From NCBI GenBank assembly GCA_027294925.1, contig JAPULM010000013.1, positions 1-14,486 of the forward strand: a stretch of 14,486 nt of DNA, given 5' to 3'. Below the pieces are notes generated by a model. It searched no databases and was not told the DNA's origin. It saw only the letters and a program-made list of their open reading frames with translations. The stretch is from a bacterium (lineage in GTDB: Bacteria; Tectomicrobia; Entotheonellia; Entotheonellales; Entotheonellaceae). This document shows positions 1 to 14,486 of the stretch, one piece after another (the stretch's first letter is position 1; every line of letters starts with the position of its first letter). The translations under genes were made by a program, and so were the position numbers.

Positions 1-1196
1 GCATCAAGACGCTTCCAGGGGACATCAAGCACGGATTGATCCGCTCCACCATGGGGTGGCGATTCGGCACCGTAAAACAACTTCCAATCACTATGCTCCC
101 CATAAACCTGCCACGCGATGGCTTCTTGAGCTAATATTTCATTTATTCCGTAACGCAGTTTAGCCGCCTGCTCATTGGCCTTTTGAATTGCAGTGCCATC
201 AGATACGGATGCAAGCATCGCAATGCCAGCGACGGCGGAGAGTGGGTTGGCGTTAAACGTGCCGGGATGGTTCATTTTAGTACGCCGCGTTTCCTCTGGG
301 GTTGATTTTGTTGCTAGGTAGCTCATTACTTCTTCTCGCCCTGCCACAGCGCCGCCCGGCAAGCCACCGGCAAGAATTTTTGCAAATGTGGCCAGATCCG
401 GTGTAACGCCAAACAATGACTGCGCACCACCCGGCGACACTCGAAAGCCGCTCACCACCTCATCGAAAATCAATAAGACGTCTGCCTGCTTGGTGGCCTC
501 ACGGAGTTGCTCGAGAAATCCGGGCGCAATGGGCACAGTTCCAAAATGACCACCGGTCGGCTCTAGTATCACTGCCGCAACGTCATGCTTAGCAAGGCTT
601 TGACGAACGGCATCGATATCATTTGGTGCACATAACACGACATTGTCGACGGCTTCTGCAAGTTGTCCTGGCTCTGCAACTGCTTCATATGGTGCCGACA
701 CCCCAACTTCAAGGCCTTCGTGCCAGCCATGAAAATGACCGGCAAATTTGATCACCTTTGCTTTACCGGTAAAGGCACGCGCCAAACGTAAGGCCATATG
801 CGTCGCTTCAGTCCCGGAGCCGGTGAAGCGCACCCTCTCGGCACAAGGCACCAGACGGCACAGCCATTCAGCCCAGTCCACTTCAAGCGCGTGACTGGCC
901 CCGTAATGTGTGCCGCGGCTAGCTTGTTCGATAATTGCATCACGAATATGGGGCGGATTGTGACCAAACAAAAGCGCTCCATGCCCCATCCAATAGTCAA
1001 TATAGGTGCGGCCATCGGTATCCCATTTATAAGCGCCGTCGGAGCGGTCAATAAAGATTGGAAAGGGATCCATGCGGCGATTATCGTGGGTAACACCATC
1101 TGGAAAGAGTGCCTTGGCACGCTCAAAAAGCGCCTTTGAGGTGGGAAGCGCGTCAACATAAGCTTGTTCAAGAGAATTGAAGTCGGATGATGGCAT
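1..1196 (-). CDS. Class III aminotransferase, glutamate-1-semialdehyde 2,1-aminomutase-like (C-terminus beyond window)
   Basis: A pyridoxal-phosphate (fold type I, class III) enzyme; 398 codons are readable from the ATG before the frame leaves the window edge. Seen in translation: a glycine/serine phosphate-binding stretch FTGSGTEATHMALRLAR (about 124-140), the cofactor Asp in LLIFDEVVSGFR (D245), and the Schiff-base lysine in FAKILAGGLPGG (K273). These line up with HemL-type aminomutases, which run to about 427 residues, so perhaps 30-50 residues are missing. The segment that reads GCYHG in authentic HemL is GHFHGWH here, so it is more likely a HemL-like paralogue (aspartate aminotransferase family) than the tetrapyrrole enzyme; the substrate is unknown. 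The start is well supported: AGGAG lies 8 nt upstream of the ATG. It follows the SUMF1-type gene on the same strand after 71 bp and may be cotranscribed with it. Confidence 0.9.
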   Translation of the reverse strand, partial: MPSSDFNSLEQAYVDALPTSKALFERAKALFPDGVTHDNRRMDPFPIFIDRSDGAYKWDTDGRTYIDYWMGHGALLFGHNPPHIRDAIIEQASRGTHYGASHALEVDWAEWLCRLVPCAERVRFTGSGTEATHMALRLARAFTGKAKVIKFAGHFHGWHEGLEVGVSAPYEAVAEPGQLAEAVDNVVLCAPNDIDAVRQSLAKHDVAAVILEPTGGHFGTVPIAPGFLEQLREATKQADVLLIFDEVVSGFRVSPGGAQSLFGVTPDLATFAKILAGGLPGGAVAGREEVMSYLATKSTPEETRRTKMNHPGTFNANPLSAVAGIAMLASVSDGTAIQKANEQAAKLRYGINEILAQEAIAWQVYGEHSDWKLFYGAESPPHGGADQSVLDVPWKRLD

Positions 1197-1267
1197 GTGT
1201 CTCACTCCTATTTGAGACGATCTCATAAATTAACCACAGCCAAGCTCAAACAGGGCTATACAAATGG

Positions 1268-4840: not shown

Positions 4841-6433
4841 ATGATCTTCGATTTGCTCATTCGTCATGGTTTTGTCCTAGACGGAACCGGTCGTGAAGGA
4901 TTCAAAGCCGATGTGGGGGTCAAAGATGGCAAGGTTACGGCCATCGACCCTGATTTAAGTGGTGAGGCCACATCGGAGATTGATGCAAGTGATCGGATTG
5001 TCTCACCTGGCTTCATCGATGTCCACACCCACTCCGATTTTACATTGCTCAGTACACCCGGAGCAGATAGTAAGATCCGGCAGGGCATCACGACTGAAGT
5101 GGTGGGTAATTGCGGCTTCTCACCTGCTCCTGTGTCACCCGGCACACGCCATCTCCTACAAGAATACGCCGGTTTTCTAAACCCGCATCTGAGCTGGGAC
5201 TGGCACAGTTTAGGCGATTATTACCAGGTTGTTCGTGAACAGGGCTGCGCTATTAATATCGTACCGCTAGTAGGGCACGGGACCATTCGGATTGCAGCGA
5301 TGGGCTTTGCCAATCGTCCGCCCACGGCAAGCGAGTTGCTCGAAATGCAACATCTGGTCGGTGCTGCTATGGAGGATGGCGCATTTGGCATCTCCTCCGG
5401 GTTGATTTACACCCCGGGTTGCTTTGGCGATACAACGGAATTAATTGCCTTAGCCAAGGTCGTAGCGGCCTCCGGCGGTATTTATGCCACCCATATGCGG
5501 GGCGAGGGCGAGGGGCTGGAAACCTCCATTGCAGAGGCCTTGGAGATTGGAGATCAAGCTCAGATAGCGGTACAAATTTCCCATCTCAAAGCCTCTGGGC
5601 GCGACCATTGGGAAAAAATGGCGCGTGCTCTGCAGATGCTTGAAGAAGGGCGAGACCGTGGTATCAAGGTGATGGCGGATATTTACCCTTACATAGCCGG
5701 TAGCACGACAATAACCAGTTTATTCCCCGCCTGGACGCTGGAAGGCGGCGTTAAAGCTTTTCTCACACGCATCGCCAATGATGAAACACGCAAGCGGATT
5801 ATTCACGAAACTCAGGGGAGTGCAGATGGTTGGTCGCGAGGCGATGGCACGGTGGGTTGGGATGATATCGTCATCGCTTCGTGCCGCAATCAAAAACAAT
5901 TTGAGGGGTCTACGCTGGCTCAGATTGCCGCCACGATAGGCCGTGAGCCTGCACAGGCGATGATGGATTTTGTTCTTGCTGAGGAAGGTGTGGTGTCAAT
6001 TATCTTGTTCATGATGTCAGAAGAAAACGTCGCGCTCGGAATTGCGCATCCCATGTTGATGATTGGTTCTGATTCCCTCGCCCTATCGACTGGTAAAGGC
6101 GGCAAACCACATCCCAGAACGTATGGGACATTTCCGCGTGTTTTAGGCAAATATGTTCGTCAGGAAGGAATCATTACGCTGCAGGAGGGTGTGCACAAGA
6201 TGACAGGTATGGCGGCGGCACAGCTTGGCCTCACAGATCGTGGCAGGCTGGCGCCAGGCAAGGCGGCCGACATCACCATTTTTGATGCCGATACGGTGAT
6301 TGATCGAGCCACTTTTGCAGCCCCTCATCAATATTCAGACGGTATCGACTATGTGATTGTTAACGGACAGATCGTTATTGAGCACGGCAATCAATCTAAC
6401 AGTTTACCCGGCCGAGTGTTGAGTAGGTCTTAA
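4841..6433 (+). CDS. N-acyl-D-amino-acid deacylase / D-aminoacylase family amidohydrolase
   Basis: 530 residues from the chosen start. It is a zinc-dependent TIM-barrel amidohydrolase that would release D-amino acids (or a related amine) from N-acyl derivatives. The metal and catalytic set can be read in order: H62 and H64 in GFIDVHTHSDF, C91 in VVGNCGFSPAP, H218 in YATHMRGEGEG, H248 in QISHLKASG, and D411 in MIGSDSLALSTGKGGKPHPR. This is the pattern of the characterised Alcaligenes D-aminoacylase. The end reads GRLAPGKAADITIFD, the usual C-terminal beta-sandwich motif. The frame is open back to a TTG at 4730, but the ATG at 4841 is preceded by AAAAGGGG and begins MIFDLLIRHGFVLDG, the expected family N-terminus, whereas the extra 37 residues resemble nothing. 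No signal peptide is seen, so it should be cytoplasmic. The YheT-like gene follows after 2 bp. Confidence 0.9.
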   Translation: MIFDLLIRHGFVLDGTGREGFKADVGVKDGKVTAIDPDLSGEATSEIDASDRIVSPGFIDVHTHSDFTLLSTPGADSKIRQGITTEVVGNCGFSPAPVSPGTRHLLQEYAGFLNPHLSWDWHSLGDYYQVVREQGCAINIVPLVGHGTIRIAAMGFANRPPTASELLEMQHLVGAAMEDGAFGISSGLIYTPGCFGDTTELIALAKVVAASGGIYATHMRGEGEGLETSIAEALEIGDQAQIAVQISHLKASGRDHWEKMARALQMLEEGRDRGIKVMADIYPYIAGSTTITSLFPAWTLEGGVKAFLTRIANDETRKRIIHETQGSADGWSRGDGTVGWDDIVIASCRNQKQFEGSTLAQIAATIGREPAQAMMDFVLAEEGVVSIILFMMSEENVALGIAHPMLMIGSDSLALSTGKGGKPHPRTYGTFPRVLGKYVRQEGIITLQEGVHKMTGMAAAQLGLTDRGRLAPGKAADITIFDADTVIDRATFAAPHQYSDGIDYVIVNGQIVIEHGNQSNSLPGRVLSRS

Positions 6434-9191: not shown

Positions 9192-9237
9192 GAAAAAATT
9201 AAGACTTATACATCGACCGCATTAACCCATTAAGCGG
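9192..9237 (-). terminator. Weak hairpin and distant T-run after the PilZ gene
   Basis: The PilZ stop codon lies inside an inverted repeat: CCGCTTAA pairs with TTAATGCGG across a short TGGG loop with one bulge (9217-9237). Six T residues on the minus strand (9192-9197) follow only after about 19 nt, so this is at best a poor terminator. Confidence 0.2.
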
Positions 9238-9589
9238 CGCAAAACTGTTCAAGGTAGTCGAGTTTAGTTGTCAATTCGTTGACTTCGCCATGCAGAAAGG
9301 TCAACCCAGCACCTGCTGGGGTACGGTGAACCACACGCGCTCGTAAGCGGTAGGGCCGACCGGAAGGCAAGACGAAGGCAGTTGTGATTGTTTCGCCAAT
9401 CGACAATTCCGGCGTGTACTCCAAAAACATGCCGCCAATTGACAAATTACGTGCCAATCCAAGCCATGCATGGCCGTTTGTGTCAATATAATCAACTCTC
9501 AATGAAACATCCCGGCGCGGGTAAACGCGCCGCTCTTCTCCTTTTTTGTCTCGATAGTCATCAAGCTTTGAAATTTGATCAAGAGCCAT
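9230..9589 (-). CDS. PilZ-domain protein (c-di-GMP binding)
   Basis: 119 residues from the chosen start. The c-di-GMP signature is complete: RxxxR as R21-V-Y-P-R25, and [D/N]xSxxG as N48-L-S50-I-G-G53, with the expected beta strands between and after (FVLPSGRPYRLRARVVHRT, about 72-90; GAGLTF, 93-98). It is a single-domain PilZ protein with no signal peptide or membrane segment, so probably a cytoplasmic c-di-GMP receptor acting on pili, flagella or exopolysaccharide. An in-frame ATG exists at 9625, but AAGGAGGTG at 9598-9606 is placed for the ATG at 9589 (8-nt spacing), so the shorter form is chosen. A sigma-54-type promoter lies about 75 bp upstream. No pilus or flagellar genes are visible in the window. 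Confidence 0.9.
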   Translation of the reverse strand: MALDQISKLDDYRDKKGEERRVYPRRDVSLRVDYIDTNGHAWLGLARNLSIGGMFLEYTPELSIGETITTAFVLPSGRPYRLRARVVHRTPAGAGLTFLHGEVNELTTKLDYLEQFCAA

Positions 9590-9597
9590 AACGATAA

Positions 9598-9606
9598 CAC
9601 CTCCTT
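9598..9606 (-). promoter_or_regulatory. Strong Shine-Dalgarno fixing the PilZ start
   Basis: AAGGAGGTG on the minus strand is a near-perfect anti-16S match, 8 nt before the ATG at 9589. It lies within the frame of the longer alternative starting at 9625, which argues that the first 12 residues of that version are not translated. Confidence 0.8.
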
Positions 9607-9663
9607 CAGAGTAGCCCAGGAACATTTTTTATCTGCAAACGATACAAGTCATTACAAGCTAAC

Positions 9664-10829: not shown

Positions 10830-11615
10830 TTAGGAGAGCGGGCTGTGGCTTGTACTAACATACATGCAGATGGCGCCACTTGTAGCGACATTCAACGATT
10901 CGCTGCCGGCGCGCATCGGGATTTTAATGCGAAACTCGGCGATCTGCTGCATGGTAGACGAAAGCCCTGCAGCCTCATTTCCCAAGACGAGAAGAAGGGG
11001 TGACTGTTGAGCGAGGACAGAGGGATCTTCCTGACCATAGGGATCGGCGGCCGCACAGACAAACCCTTTTTGTTGCAGCGCACGCAGTAGATCAAGGTAA
11101 TGGGTCGTCCGCCTTAGCCACACGGACAACACAGTACCAGCCGTAGCTTGCACGACTTTAGGTGCTAAAGGATCGGCACACTTTTCAGATAAAATGACGC
11201 CGGCAAAGCCAAGAGCCGTCGCTGTACGAATAAGTGCCCCGACATTCCCCGGGTCTTGTACATCTTCCAAGATAAGAACATGAGAGCCAATCTCGCTTGG
11301 CAAGACGTCTGAATAGATCTCAGGCGGAGAGGTGACAATAGCAAGAACGTTTGGCGGGCTTTTTGAATTTGCGATACTGCTAAGCTGACGTTCAGTCACG
11401 CTGTACAAGGGGAGATGCCGCAGCTCAGGCGGTGGTGCGCCCACATAAAGTATTTCAACAATGGCGTTAGGCTGGCGATGCGCAATATGTCTGACGGCTC
11501 GGATGCCTTCAACCAAGAAGCAGCCGTTTTCCAACCGGCCTTTCCGGCTGGTAAGTTTCTTGTACCATTTGATGGCTCGGCGTTGTGCTGGGGCTTCATG
11601 TGGCTGAGGCGACAT
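10830..11615 (-). CDS. TrmH/SpoU-family RNA 2'-O-methyltransferase
   Basis: 261 residues. The N-terminal RNA-binding part has KLTSRKGRLENGCFLVEGIRAV (20-41), typical of SpoU substrate-binding domains. The SPOUT knot motifs follow: LEDVQDPGNVGALIRTA (116-132) with N124 and R130, LLLVLGNEAAGLS (207-219), and IKIPMRAGSESLNVATSGAICMY (230-252). The enzyme would methylate a ribose 2'-OH in rRNA or tRNA using S-adenosylmethionine; the target nucleotide is not deducible. The ATG at 11615 has only a distant AGGGA. A much stronger ribosome-binding site upstream serves a 17-codon leader ORF in another frame that overlaps this start, suggesting translational coupling or a frameshift. Confidence 0.9.
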   Translation of the reverse strand: MSPQPHEAPAQRRAIKWYKKLTSRKGRLENGCFLVEGIRAVRHIAHRQPNAIVEILYVGAPPPELRHLPLYSVTERQLSSIANSKSPPNVLAIVTSPPEIYSDVLPSEIGSHVLILEDVQDPGNVGALIRTATALGFAGVILSEKCADPLAPKVVQATAGTVLSVWLRRTTHYLDLLRALQQKGFVCAAADPYGQEDPSVLAQQSPLLLVLGNEAAGLSSTMQQIAEFRIKIPMRAGSESLNVATSGAICMYVSTSHSPLS

Positions 11616-11649
11616 ACATGCAACTCAATCCCTGATCCATGAGGTTCAT
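11596..11649 (-). CDS. Leader ORF (17 aa) overlapping the RNA methyltransferase start
   Basis: On the minus strand GGGAGGAGG (11653-11661), the best ribosome-binding site in this region, is followed by ATG at 11649 and the frame MNLMDQGLSCMYVASAT, then TGA at 11596-11598. The ORF runs 20 nt past the methyltransferase start (11615), in a different frame, so ribosomes ending here could re-initiate on the main gene. The peptide has no run of one amino acid, so classical attenuation is unlikely. A sequence error shifting the true start of the methyltransferase is the main alternative. Confidence 0.4.
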   Translation of the reverse strand: MNLMDQGLSCMYVASAT

Positions 11650-11662
11650 TTTCCTCCTCCCT

Positions 11663-11965
11663 TCAAGCGTCGGCGAGGTGAGGACTGGCTTCAGAGGCTT
11701 GGGCGGATAGGCAAAATAAAGCACATTTTTTCCTCTGTGTCCACTGAGGCTGGTTGCCGGGTAGGGTTTCGAGCCTGGACGTGTCTCTGAAAGAATCCTT
11801 CTCTTTCCCAGCTAGAGGGTGTGTATGGTTACGTATAGGTGATTCAGATGGCATTTTAGCGCCCGCCCCCTGGGCTGCGCGCAACCCCTGAAAACACTCT
11901 TGGACACATGATAAGCAAAAGGCATGGCCTTGAATAACCGGGCAGAAGTTCCTGAATAATTCCAA
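11663..11965 (-). CDS. Doubtful Cys-rich ORF (up to 100 aa)
   Basis: An open frame in the 400-bp gap between the 712-residue protein and the RNA methyltransferase. The longest version begins at a TTG inside a T-run with no Shine-Dalgarno sequence. Its first part, FCPVIQGHAFCLSCVQECF (7-25), has four Cys (8, 17, 20, 24) and one His and could hold a metal, but the rest looks like non-coding translation (many Pro/Gln/Ser, no hydrophobic core). It stops just before the strong ribosome-binding site at 11653-11661. A pseudogene remnant or non-coding sequence is as likely as a gene. Confidence 0.18.
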   Translation of the reverse strand: MELFRNFCPVIQGHAFCLSCVQECFQGLRAAQGAGAKMPSESPIRNHTHPLAGKEKDSFRDTSRLETLPGNQPQWTQRKKCALFCLSAQASEASPHLADA

Positions 11966-11996
11966 AAAAATCAGTCAGTCCATCTCACTAGAGTGG
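11964..11996 (-). terminator. Candidate rho-independent terminator after the 712-residue protein gene
   Basis: On the minus strand CCACTC (11991-11996) pairs with GAG-A-TGG (11980-11986, one bulged A) across a TAGT loop. Nine nt later comes a run of seven T residues (11964-11970). The stem is short and the spacer long, so it is suggestive only. It lies about 25 nt after the stop codon at 12019. Confidence 0.33.
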
Positions 11997-12018
11997 CGCG
12001 GTAATGCGTTACGTGGCA

Positions 12019-14157
12019 CTAGTTGCGTGAGTGATACCAACGCCACAAACTGCCCACCGCAGCACCGGCCAAAAGGCCACCGAGGGTGCCGGCAGCAAAG
12101 AGAAAATACCACTGCAATGCGGACAGCGACTGATTTAAGATATAGATCAAAAAGACCAAAAAAACTAAAAGGGCAATATTGGCAACAATGCTTCCGAAGA
12201 TGGCTGTCAGAAAGACAAAGCGGAGATTGGCATGCCCATCTCTGCCTTCAGGAGCTTGGCGTTTATCTGTTGCTTCAAGCTCTCTAATGGTTGTTTTTAA
12301 AGATTGTAGATCGTGCCATGCACACCAAAATTGATCCGCATTGGTGAACGAGTCAATACCCTGCAGTCGGGATAGCTGTATGTTCATACCTGCCATTCGC
12401 TGATCTTTGATGTCTTGTCCACCTAAGTTTAAAGCAAATATTAGCGCTTTTAGCTCTTGCGCTACGTTACCCAAGCTGGAATTGAAACCTTTGTGAAGAT
12501 ACGCAATTCGCTGAGAGAGTAGGATCTGGTATCGTTTTTGGATCACCTCAGCTTCTTTAACGGCATCGCAATAACCCAAATAACTATCGCTCTTAATACG
12601 CTCCGTTACCAGTTGGAGGGAACGTTCGGCGGTTTGTAGCTCCGCTTCAGGCTGCTGGTACCACTCACGTAGCTCGTTGTATTTATCACTTGCCTGCTTC
12701 ATCTGAACCAATGCAAGGTTGCGTGTTTCCTGTAAAATGGTGGTTAGAATGGGTGAAATACGGTTTCGAAAATGCACAAAGGCTGGATCAAGCGCCACTT
12801 TTAAAAAGGCTGTGCGATCTTCAGAGGTTAGTTTTTTAAGATAATTGGAAAGGTTTAAATTGTTGTTCAACTTAAATTGAATTGCTCTTCTACGATAATT
12901 CGCCTCGTCTAAATATGGATATCGATCGAGGGCTTTATTGAGTTCTTGTTGGGCTTTCTCCATTTGCCCATCAAGATCGAATGAGCGATGCAAAAGGAGG
13001 TGAATATAGGCGCCTTGCAAGTTGGTTTTTACAAGTGGCAAGGCCTTGCGCCAGTATTGCTGGGTGGTATAAGACTGCCCATTTTCCATTGCCAAAAAGC
13101 CAAGTGCGACGTAAGGCTTATGATCGCCCCGATTGCTATCCAGAGCTGCATCAAGATACTGCTGGGCTTCTTTTAGCCGTCCAGCCCGTAGGGCATCTAC
13201 CCCGAGACACAACCGTGTACCCGCTAATGAAGATGTTACAACCGGACTTGGTTGGCATAAAGAACGCCAATTTTCATTGCTTGCTACCCAAACCCTGCTT
13301 AAAAAACGAAGCTGGTATGGTAAATAAATTTCATAATAGGCTTCAAACATGTCTTCATTGTCTTTTTCCACTAAAGTAGACGCATTGAGGTCCGCTTGTT
13401 GAAAACGCCCTAAGACTTTATGCAAGGGTTGATAGCCTAATTGATTCAGCTTCCCAGCATTTCTTGACATTTGCTTGGAAGGACAGTTCATGGCCAGATG
13501 TTCTTTTAACCCGCAATAAAAACAAGCATGGTGGGTGCCGGAAAAACTTCGAAATGAGGTTGTGTTGGCCACTAGTTCTGCGCTTTGTTGCCAAAGCACC
13601 TCATAAACGTCCACGTCATCCTCATCTTCCTTGCAGCAAATCGGGCCATAAGGAAGCAGAGGCGGTTCATCATCCCTGTTTAATTGATCATAGACAGCCT
13701 GAGACAGTAGAATTTGGGCAGCTTCAGTAGCGTCATTCAAGCGTGCTGAAATGTTTAAGAGTTCCTCGCAGACCTCATCCGTTTCGCCTCCCGCGCTGCC
13801 ATAATGGAGTGCGATTTTAGTTTGTACAGGTGGAGGGTCTGAATCGCTCTCATTATCGTCCAGCAGGCTCTGCTGGATGGCTACTGAGCAGTTCAAAGCG
13901 TCTGTAACGTTGCTAAACGACGCCACTACGGTATCATCCATCGGTTTTCTAATACGCCCCGCGTACTGCTCAATTAGTTGCACCAGAGTATCATAATGTC
14001 GTTGGGCGACCTTACGCCCTTCGAGATGATTGTTTTTTTGCGGTAAGGGAGATGAGTCGACAAGATTAGCAAGCAACAAACAAAGATTTTGCCCTAAGGT
14101 TGGCGCAATAGAGCGTACGTCATTGTTCTCACTTAAGACAGGCTGCGACGATTGCAT
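12019..14157 (-). CDS. Multidomain membrane protein: degenerate class III cyclase domain, CCHC zinc knuckle, TPR-like repeats, C-terminal anchor
   Basis: 712 residues from the chosen ATG. Residues about 22-160 read like an adenylate/guanylate cyclase homology domain: LCLLLANLVDSS (25-36), a helix up to IEQYAGRIRKPMDDTVVASF (62-81), SNVTDALNCSVAIQQSLL (82-99), KIALHYGSAGG (114-124), LLNISARLNDATEAAQILLS (133-152). The first metal Asp is Asn (N31), while D74/D75, N135 and R139 remain. C212-x2-C215-x4-H220-x4-C225 is an exact zinc knuckle. Residues about 313-430 hold two or three TPR-like repeats (LCLGVDALRAGRLKEAQQYLDAAL is the clearest). Residues about 470-560 are charged and helical, probably coiled coil. 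Membrane helices are at about 646-674 and 682-705, the second with a glycine zipper, leaving N- and C-termini in the cytoplasm. The frame is open to a TTG at 14193, but TGAGGA 4 nt before the ATG at 14157 supports the shorter form. I infer a membrane-tethered sensor or scaffold; catalysis is doubtful. Confidence 0.85.
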   Translation of the reverse strand: MQSSQPVLSENNDVRSIAPTLGQNLCLLLANLVDSSPLPQKNNHLEGRKVAQRHYDTLVQLIEQYAGRIRKPMDDTVVASFSNVTDALNCSVAIQQSLLDDNESDSDPPPVQTKIALHYGSAGGETDEVCEELLNISARLNDATEAAQILLSQAVYDQLNRDDEPPLLPYGPICCKEDEDDVDVYEVLWQQSAELVANTTSFRSFSGTHHACFYCGLKEHLAMNCPSKQMSRNAGKLNQLGYQPLHKVLGRFQQADLNASTLVEKDNEDMFEAYYEIYLPYQLRFLSRVWVASNENWRSLCQPSPVVTSSLAGTRLCLGVDALRAGRLKEAQQYLDAALDSNRGDHKPYVALGFLAMENGQSYTTQQYWRKALPLVKTNLQGAYIHLLLHRSFDLDGQMEKAQQELNKALDRYPYLDEANYRRRAIQFKLNNNLNLSNYLKKLTSEDRTAFLKVALDPAFVHFRNRISPILTTILQETRNLALVQMKQASDKYNELREWYQQPEAELQTAERSLQLVTERIKSDSYLGYCDAVKEAEVIQKRYQILLSQRIAYLHKGFNSSLGNVAQELKALIFALNLGGQDIKDQRMAGMNIQLSRLQGIDSFTNADQFWCAWHDLQSLKTTIRELEATDKRQAPEGRDGHANLRFVFLTAIFGSIVANIALLVFLVFLIYILNQSLSALQWYFLFAAGTLGGLLAGAAVGSLWRWYHSRN

Positions 14158-14486
14158 GGATTCCTCAAGCCCATTAGTCTCAGTTGGAGACAAAGCTTTT
14201 TGGATGGATTTTTTGCTGCGCTTTCTTCAATCATACAGATAGTTGTGAAGCGTAGGAACCAGAGTCCTTTATCGTCAATCGTAGATGGATGGTTTAGGGC
14301 GAATGTTGCTGGTTGCGATCTGACCCGTGCTCTATATGCTGGGATGCAGGGAAGGCGGCTTGTGGACGTGAAAGGGAAACAAGGTCTTGCTGCAAAACAT
14401 TATATGTCACCCTCGACAGAATAAATAGACCTGGTATATCATCGTGTTTAGCAGCAATTGACGCACCTTTTTTGGCGAAGCTCAAC
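14158..14486. other. Non-coding region upstream of the 712-residue protein gene
   Basis: About 330 bp without a supportable gene. Short frames on both strands lack ribosome-binding sites and recognisable sequence. On the minus strand TATAAT occurs at 14399-14404, but no acceptable -35 box lies 16-18 bp upstream, so it is only a weak promoter candidate for the gene starting at 14157. No tRNA, repeat or terminator was seen. Confidence 0.4.

What the first reader, a model, noticed from the sequence alone, without database searches (positions are those of the whole stretch)
12019..14157. Unfamiliar domain combination: cyclase-like domain, zinc knuckle, TPR-like repeats and C-terminal membrane hairpin in one protein
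Reading the 712-residue product from N to C gives a class III cyclase homology domain, a CCHC zinc knuckle, TPR-like helices, a charged helical region and two adjacent membrane helices. Each part is visible in the sequence. Bacterial cyclase-plus-TPR proteins are known, but I know of none that insert a zinc knuckle between them and end in a C-terminal membrane hairpin. The geometry suggests a cytoplasmic sensor or scaffold held at the inner membrane. It may represent an undescribed signalling family.
Basis: partly seen in the sequence, partly recalled or inferred. Interest (0 to 1): 0.75.

Follow-up and report, generated by a model that had tools for sequence, protein, structure and literature searches.

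The report
Zinc-knuckle TPR protein with degenerate cyclase
An uncharacterised bacterial protein joins a nucleotide-cyclase-like domain, a virus-style zinc knuckle, TPR repeats and a membrane hairpin; its relatives keep the zinc knuckle almost unchanged while the cyclase part has often lost key residues, which suggests that the zinc knuckle rather than the cyclase is the heart of an undescribed family.

Summary
The gene is on the minus strand (14157→12019, 712 aa). Residues 21-190 take the class III cyclase fold in a good model; 212-225 form an exact C-X2-C-X4-H-X4-C knuckle; TPRs, long helices and a C-terminal hairpin follow. I gathered 47 family proteins (a lower bound; the searches score a capped candidate list), including ones named Tectomicrobia, Nitrospinota, Desulfobacterota and Desulfovibrio. 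No family-specific Pfam or NCBIfam model turned up, nor any paper in my searches. (1) The zinc knuckle is the constant part: spacing kept in 46 of 47, the 47th a fragment lacking that region. The cyclase has all six catalytic residues in 21 of 28 close members, keeps its metal sites but never the catalytic Arg in ten Desulfobacterota-type proteins, and is not recognisable by sequence in the Desulfovibrio type. (2) In the window's three-member clade each member has lost a metal-binding Asp, and the cyclase, elsewhere the best conserved region, is the least conserved soluble part. Best reading: a membrane-tethered, probably dimeric zinc-knuckle/TPR scaffold, with a likely adenylyl cyclase output in most close relatives and a pseudocyclase here. 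Zinc binding, topology, ligand and partners are untested.

The parts
12019..14157 (-). 712-aa ORF (ATG to stop), the whole protein
   Evidence: full-length relatives at 61-62% identity
14162..14166 (-). GAGGA, possible ribosome-binding site 4 bases upstream of the ATG
   Evidence: read directly; not tested
13588..14097 (-). class III nucleotide cyclase homology domain, residues 21-190, degenerate active site
   Evidence: AF2 model and structural match; catalytic columns
14065..14067 (-). residue 31: Asn at the first metal-binding Asp position
   Evidence: Asp in 25 of 27 aligned rows of the close family
13774..13776 (-). residue 128: Glu at the adenine-specifying Asp position
   Evidence: Asp in 26 of 28 aligned rows of the close family
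13474..13524 (-). CCHC zinc knuckle, residues 212-228 (CFYCGLKEHLAMNCPSK)
12820..13215 (-). TPR-like helical repeats, residues 315-446
12256..12819 (-). long-helix region, residues 447-634
   Evidence: model secondary structure
12136..12240 (-). helix 640-674 with the first hydrophobic membrane segment (656-674)
12046..12120 (-). residues 680-704 with the second hydrophobic membrane segment (686-704)
12064..12090 (-). GxxxGxxxG motif in the second membrane helix, residues 690-698
   Evidence: the three Gly columns are at least 90% conserved in A1; a GxxxGxxxG is in the last 60 residues of 35 of 47 family proteins

Best explanation
The protein is a cytoplasmic scaffold or sensor held at the inner membrane by a C-terminal two-helix hairpin, both ends inside, probably dimerised through a GxxxGxxxG helix and through the cyclase fold. 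Its conserved working part is a zinc knuckle fused to TPR repeats, which most likely binds a ligand (nucleic acid or protein). In most of the close family this core is coupled to a cyclase domain with a complete adenylyl cyclase residue set, so that binding would change cAMP output. In the window's three-member clade the cyclase has lost metal-binding Asp residues and serves, I infer, only as a dimerisation or nucleotide-binding module, or as one half of a pair with an intact partner. Shown: domains, fold, conservation, loss of catalytic residues, faster divergence of the cyclase domain. Inferred: zinc binding, membrane topology, dimerisation, ligand, enzyme activity of the relatives, signalling direction.
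For: Cyclase fold in the model. All six catalytic residues in 21 of 28 close members; window Me1 D→N and AdeD D→E; P0002 Me1 D→E and N→D; P0003 Me2 D→Q, AdeD→E, N→D, R→C (same reading from a separate alignment). The three form a clade (100/100) with cyclase identities of 52.4, 55.0 and 63.1% against TPR 75.8, 71.2 and 78.8%, while in the 21 other rows compared the cyclase is the most conserved region (65.5%, TPR 59.9%) (24 of 28 rows used, P0022, P0025, P0027, P0028 dropped). Zinc ligands kept in 46 of 47; of the 12 Cys of the window protein only the three knuckle Cys are invariant over the 25 rows of A3. Downstream homology of the groups holds with the knuckle cut off: HHalign probability 99.4-100% in five of six comparisons, 83.6% in the sixth. 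GxxxGxxxG in 35 of 47; 131 of 5000 shuffles of the window tail have it. Cyclase part net -21, knuckle and TPR parts basic.
Against: No ligand, partner, operon or expression evidence. Neighbours in the window look like unrelated housekeeping genes. The only relative whose DNA neighbourhood I read, L001, has other genes upstream (a PriA-like and a 158-aa ORF by my own reading), so no shared neighbourhood was shown. K71, D75, N135 and R139 are kept in the window protein, so residual or heterodimeric activity is not excluded. P0002's cyclase is still closer to outside members (mean 52.9%) than its TPR part is (47.5%), so decay is uneven in the clade; the membrane part of the clade is as variable as the cyclase. 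The hydropathy threshold misses one or both helices in 16 of 47.
Confidence: 0.6

Rival explanations
1. The protein is still a working adenylyl cyclase, alone or as one half of a heterodimer that supplies Asn135 and Arg139 while an intact partner supplies the metal-binding Asp pair.
For: K71, D75, N135 and R139 kept. Ma1120 is an active cyclase although it lacks the usual Asn (PMC4215837, passages), so one changed residue need not kill activity. Ten Desulfobacterota-type relatives show the opposite half: both metal Asp kept, Arg lost.
Against: A metal-binding Asp is lost in each of the three clade members and the domain diverges fastest among soluble parts. No partner is known; no whole genome is held for the window.
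Confidence: 0.2
2. The knuckle is a nucleic-acid binder of retroviral nucleocapsid type, making the protein an RNA- or DNA-tethering factor at the membrane with no cyclic nucleotide role in this clade.
For: Exact CCHC spacing with an aromatic after the first Cys and Gly after the second (likeness to retroviral knuckles recalled); 5 of 25 members match Pfam zf-CCHC at E up to 0.05, best 0.0046. Knuckle and TPR parts are basic.
Against: zf-CCHC is not listed for the window protein up to E 10. Zinc knuckles also bind proteins (recalled). No binding data.
Confidence: 0.3
3. The gene is a decaying remnant of a family cyclase.
For: Loss of catalytic residues.
Against: The frame is open over 712 codons, the TPR part stays 71-79% identical within the clade, and two relatives have products of the same length.
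Confidence: 0.05

Closest known systems
Class III nucleotide cyclases (Ma1120 4wp8; 3mr7; Rv1900c 1ybu)
   Different: Window protein lacks the first metal Asp and the adenine-specifying Asp; its cyclase is followed by zinc knuckle, TPR and a C-terminal membrane hairpin
Bacterial cyclase-TPR proteins (PF00211 with TPR, many with PF13191)
   Same: Cyclase and TPR in one chain; distant hits
   Different: None of the 38 left-over hits P0029-P0066 has a C-X2-C-X4-H-X4-C motif; matches cover at most 26% of the query where a coverage is given
Zinc knuckle zf-CCHC (PF00098)
   Same: C-X2-C-X4-H-X4-C spacing, aromatic after the first Cys, Gly after the second
   Different: Not found by the Pfam model in the window protein; a single knuckle between cyclase and TPR in a bacterial protein with a membrane hairpin
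Desulfovibrio-type 'tetratricopeptide repeat protein' (P0082, D. aerotolerans)
   Same: Same knuckle, homologous TPR and helical part, two C-terminal hydrophobic segments
   Different: N-terminal 350 residues not recognisable as cyclase by HHalign (probability under 1%); the model there has low confidence; no GxxxGxxxG

Membership tests
Class III nucleotide cyclase (fold) | cyclase homology fold | tested here: met
Class III nucleotide cyclase (active enzyme) | two metal-binding Asp | tested here: not met
   Asn31 in place of the first Asp; the second (75) is present
Class III nucleotide cyclase (active enzyme) | Lys/Asp substrate pair of adenylyl cyclases | tested here: not met
   K71 kept, Asp→Glu128; roles from PMC4215837, passages
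Class III nucleotide cyclase (active enzyme) | transition-state Asn/Arg | tested here: met
   N135, R139
Class III nucleotide cyclase (active enzyme) | makes cAMP or cGMP | not testable with these tools
   needs an assay
Zinc knuckle (zf-CCHC) | C-X2-C-X4-H-X4-C with conserved ligands | tested here: met
   46 of 47, the 47th a fragment
Zinc knuckle (zf-CCHC) | Pfam PF00098 match over its cut-off | tested here: inconclusive
   not listed for the window protein; 5 of 25 members at E up to 0.05, where cut-offs are not shown
Zinc knuckle (zf-CCHC) | binds zinc and nucleic acid | not testable with these tools
   needs purified protein
TPR protein | TPR helix pairs | tested here: met
   22 of 25 members hit TPR_2 at E up to 0.05; helix pairs in the model; the window alone is below Pfam's cut-offs
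Protein with C-terminal membrane hairpin | two membrane helices | tested here: met
   656-674 and 686-704 by Kyte-Doolittle hydropathy only; no topology predictor or experiment
Pycsar defence cyclase (PycC) | PADLOC PycC match with an effector gene beside it | tested here: inconclusive
   PycC model matches at 5.7e-5 in the window protein; no gene recognised as an effector among the window's Pfam hits, but the window ends 329 bases upstream of the gene

The most novel reading that the evidence does not exclude
An undescribed bacterial family in which a membrane-anchored zinc knuckle plus TPR acts as receptor for a nucleic acid (or another zinc-knuckle ligand). One branch reports binding by cAMP; others have turned the cyclase into a pseudoenzyme or replaced it, so that nucleotide signalling is an optional output of a conserved zinc-knuckle core.
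Probability: 0.25. Interest if true: 0.75.

Novelty: new variant of a known kind. Interest (0 to 1): 0.5.

Why it matters
CCHC zinc knuckles are known mostly from eukaryotes and retroviruses (recalled). A bacterial family in which the knuckle is nearly invariant while the attached cyclase is kept, degraded or unrecognisable is a natural series for asking what the knuckle senses and how cyclase pseudoenzymes arise.

Tried and rejected
Genome neighbourhood: genome contigs gave nothing with the single protein and one locus with the alignment (L001). Viral contigs gave nothing with A1 or A4. Plasmids had no match to P0082; P0028 matched 362 plasmid records, none over 80% of the query, and the 20 rows listed cover 18-24% at the cyclase end. 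Of the 5 genomes held for L001's phylum 1, its own, has the family. A family search for zf-CCHC rang neither in G001 nor in the 14 control genomes, which the tool says does not show absence.

Cyclase origin of the Desulfovibrio-type N-terminus: HHalign found no homology. The model is poor (mean pLDDT 58.2), and the 50 Foldseek rows shown are TPR-type or other helical chains by title. The order of strands and helices in that model looks like a cyclase core, but at this confidence it is not evidence.

Fold of the other parts: VIA-align rows cover mainly residues 15-193; TPR, long helices and hairpin were not folded and searched alone.

PADLOC: the Pycsar cyclase model PycC matches at 5.7e-5 (window) and 2.3e-9 (P0004), not P0082; I take it as general cyclase similarity.

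Rfam and tRNA scans of the window were empty. Promoter and terminator hits in 11600-14486 are at chance level.

Papers: searches are search listings. Three gave no paper; in the others I saw no title on this family, but one search listed 15 of 26 and one search listed 6 of 28. PMC4215837 was seen as passages. PMC2447327 (cyclase survey in Actinobacteria) was searched for zinc, TPR, tetratricopeptide, inactive cyclase, transmembrane and knuckle with no occurrence in the main text held.

Full report
What is there. The finding's coordinates hold one long ORF on the minus strand, 14157 to 12019, 712 residues. Frame 1 of the plus strand is closed. The closest relatives, P0002 and P0003, have the same length at 62 and 61% identity; 28 proteins including the window's form a close family, P0028 being a distant member at 24% (alignment A1). 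The search scored only the 7994 candidates sharing most words, so the family may be larger. Named sources are a Tectomicrobia MAG (P0008) and a Nitrospinota MAG (P0027).

Active site. Six positions were read from A1. All six canonical residues are present in 21 of 28; P0025 is truncated before three of them. The window has N31 and E128 in place of Asp, with K71, D75, N135 and R139 kept. P0002 has Glu at the first metal site and Asp for Asn. P0003 has Gln at the second metal site (with an Asp one residue earlier), Glu for the adenine Asp, Asp for Asn and Cys for Arg. P0020 (Asn→His), P0027 (Arg→Gln) and P0028 (Lys→Asn, Asn→Asp, Arg→Lys) also depart. A separate alignment gave the same readings for P0001-P0003. 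The roles of Lys/Asp and Asn/Arg follow PMC4215837 (passages). It also shows an active cyclase without the usual Asn, so I take only the loss of a metal Asp as strong evidence against activity.

Relaxed constraint on the cyclase. P0001-P0003 form a clade with 100/100 support (25 rows, P0022, P0025, P0027 left out; the letter make-up of P0001, P0002 and P0028 was flagged as unusual). In 24 of the 28 rows (P0028 also left out), the cyclase is the best conserved region among the 21 others (65.5% mean; knuckle region 60.0, TPR 59.9). Inside the clade it falls to 52.4, 55.0 and 63.1%, below every other soluble region (TPR 75.8, 71.2, 78.8). The membrane segment is about as variable (58.9, 49.3, 65.8). 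Against the picture: P0002's cyclase is still 52.9% identical on average to the others, above its TPR part (47.5%); for the window the figures are 42.0 and 45.9, for P0003 45.7 and 46.5. Decay is uneven.

Zinc knuckle. CFYCGLKEHLAMNC is the only stop-free hit to this spacing in six frames of the window, and 1 of 20000 shuffles of the protein makes it. A search with the knuckle-to-end part (A2) listed 21 proteins, 19 of them new, among them ones named Desulfobacterota, Deltaproteobacteria and Desulfovibrio aerotolerans. Of the 47 family proteins so gathered 46 carry the spacing and 43 the full CFYCGxxxHxxxxCPSK; P0005, P0010 and P0014 differ by one letter each and the fragment P0077 starts in the TPR part. 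Of the window's 12 Cys only 212, 215 and 225 are invariant in the 25 rows of A3, with His220. The other 38 hits (P0029-P0066), left out of these counts, lack the motif (38 of 38).

The core is more constant than the cyclase. With the knuckle cut away, the downstream parts of the close, Desulfobacterota-type, Desulfovibrio-type and P0079/P0080 groups still align at HHalign probabilities of 99.4-100% in five of six comparisons and 83.6% in the sixth; TPR repeats may add to this. The N-terminal parts behave otherwise. In ten Desulfobacterota-type proteins (P0028, P0067-P0075; only some carry an organism name) both metal Asp are kept in 10 of 10, the Arg in 0 of 10, Asn and Lys in 4 of 10 each, the adenine Asp in 7 of 10. 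A second, degenerate copy follows in some: sets of such segments match the cyclase profile at 96.3 and 95.6% (tested as sets, not one by one). P0076 and P0078 seem to have only that copy. In the Desulfovibrio type (P0081-P0085) and P0079/P0080 no cyclase homology is detectable, and the structure prediction is too weak to decide.

Membrane part. Two C-terminal hydrophobic segments pass a Kyte-Doolittle threshold in 31 of 47, one in 13, none in 3; flanking charges are mostly positive on both sides, which suits both ends in the cytoplasm, but several loops are slightly positive too. Columns G690, G694 and G698 are at least 90% conserved in A1. GxxxGxxxG lies in the last 60 residues of 35 of 47; the five Desulfovibrio-type proteins, P0079, P0080, P0069, P0073, P0075 and the two C-terminally incomplete ones lack it. 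Shuffles of the window's tail give it in 131 of 5000, so single occurrences mean little; its column conservation in the close family does.

Library coverage. Pfam was scanned for 25 members (25 of 36 matching families shown) and NCBIfam for the window protein and seven relatives. No model specific to this architecture was listed.

Context. The window holds, by Pfam, SUMF1-like, LMW phosphatase, DUF493, two HAD proteins, HhH-GPD glycosylase, amidohydrolase, alpha/beta hydrolase, LOG-type (lysine decarboxylase-like), PilZ, CobW and SpoU genes. SpoU is the next recognised gene downstream on the same strand, 403 bases away. Nothing there points to a pathway.

Judgement. The architecture is real, conserved and, as far as my searches go, undescribed. 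The most likely function is a membrane-held zinc-knuckle/TPR scaffold whose cyclase output is dispensable and lost in this clade. Binding partner, zinc occupancy, topology and the activity of the intact relatives are inferred.

Noticed in passing
window 3-1226, minus: ORF running off the window end that reads like a class III aminotransferase (glutamate-1-semialdehyde aminomutase type, recalled from the sequence); not searched.
   Followed up: no
window 9230-9625, minus: PilZ-domain protein, usually a cyclic-di-GMP binder (recalled), three genes from the cyclase-like gene; no link shown.
   Followed up: no
P0028, P0067, P0068, P0074; P0073, P0075: A second, degenerate cyclase-like segment lies between the first cyclase domain and the zinc knuckle (tested as two sets).
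   Followed up: partly
window 4844-6433, plus: The amidohydrolase is 67-72% identical to proteins in three of the five genomes of L001's phylum, in which the zinc-knuckle family was not found; a hint at the window's kinship only.
   Followed up: partly
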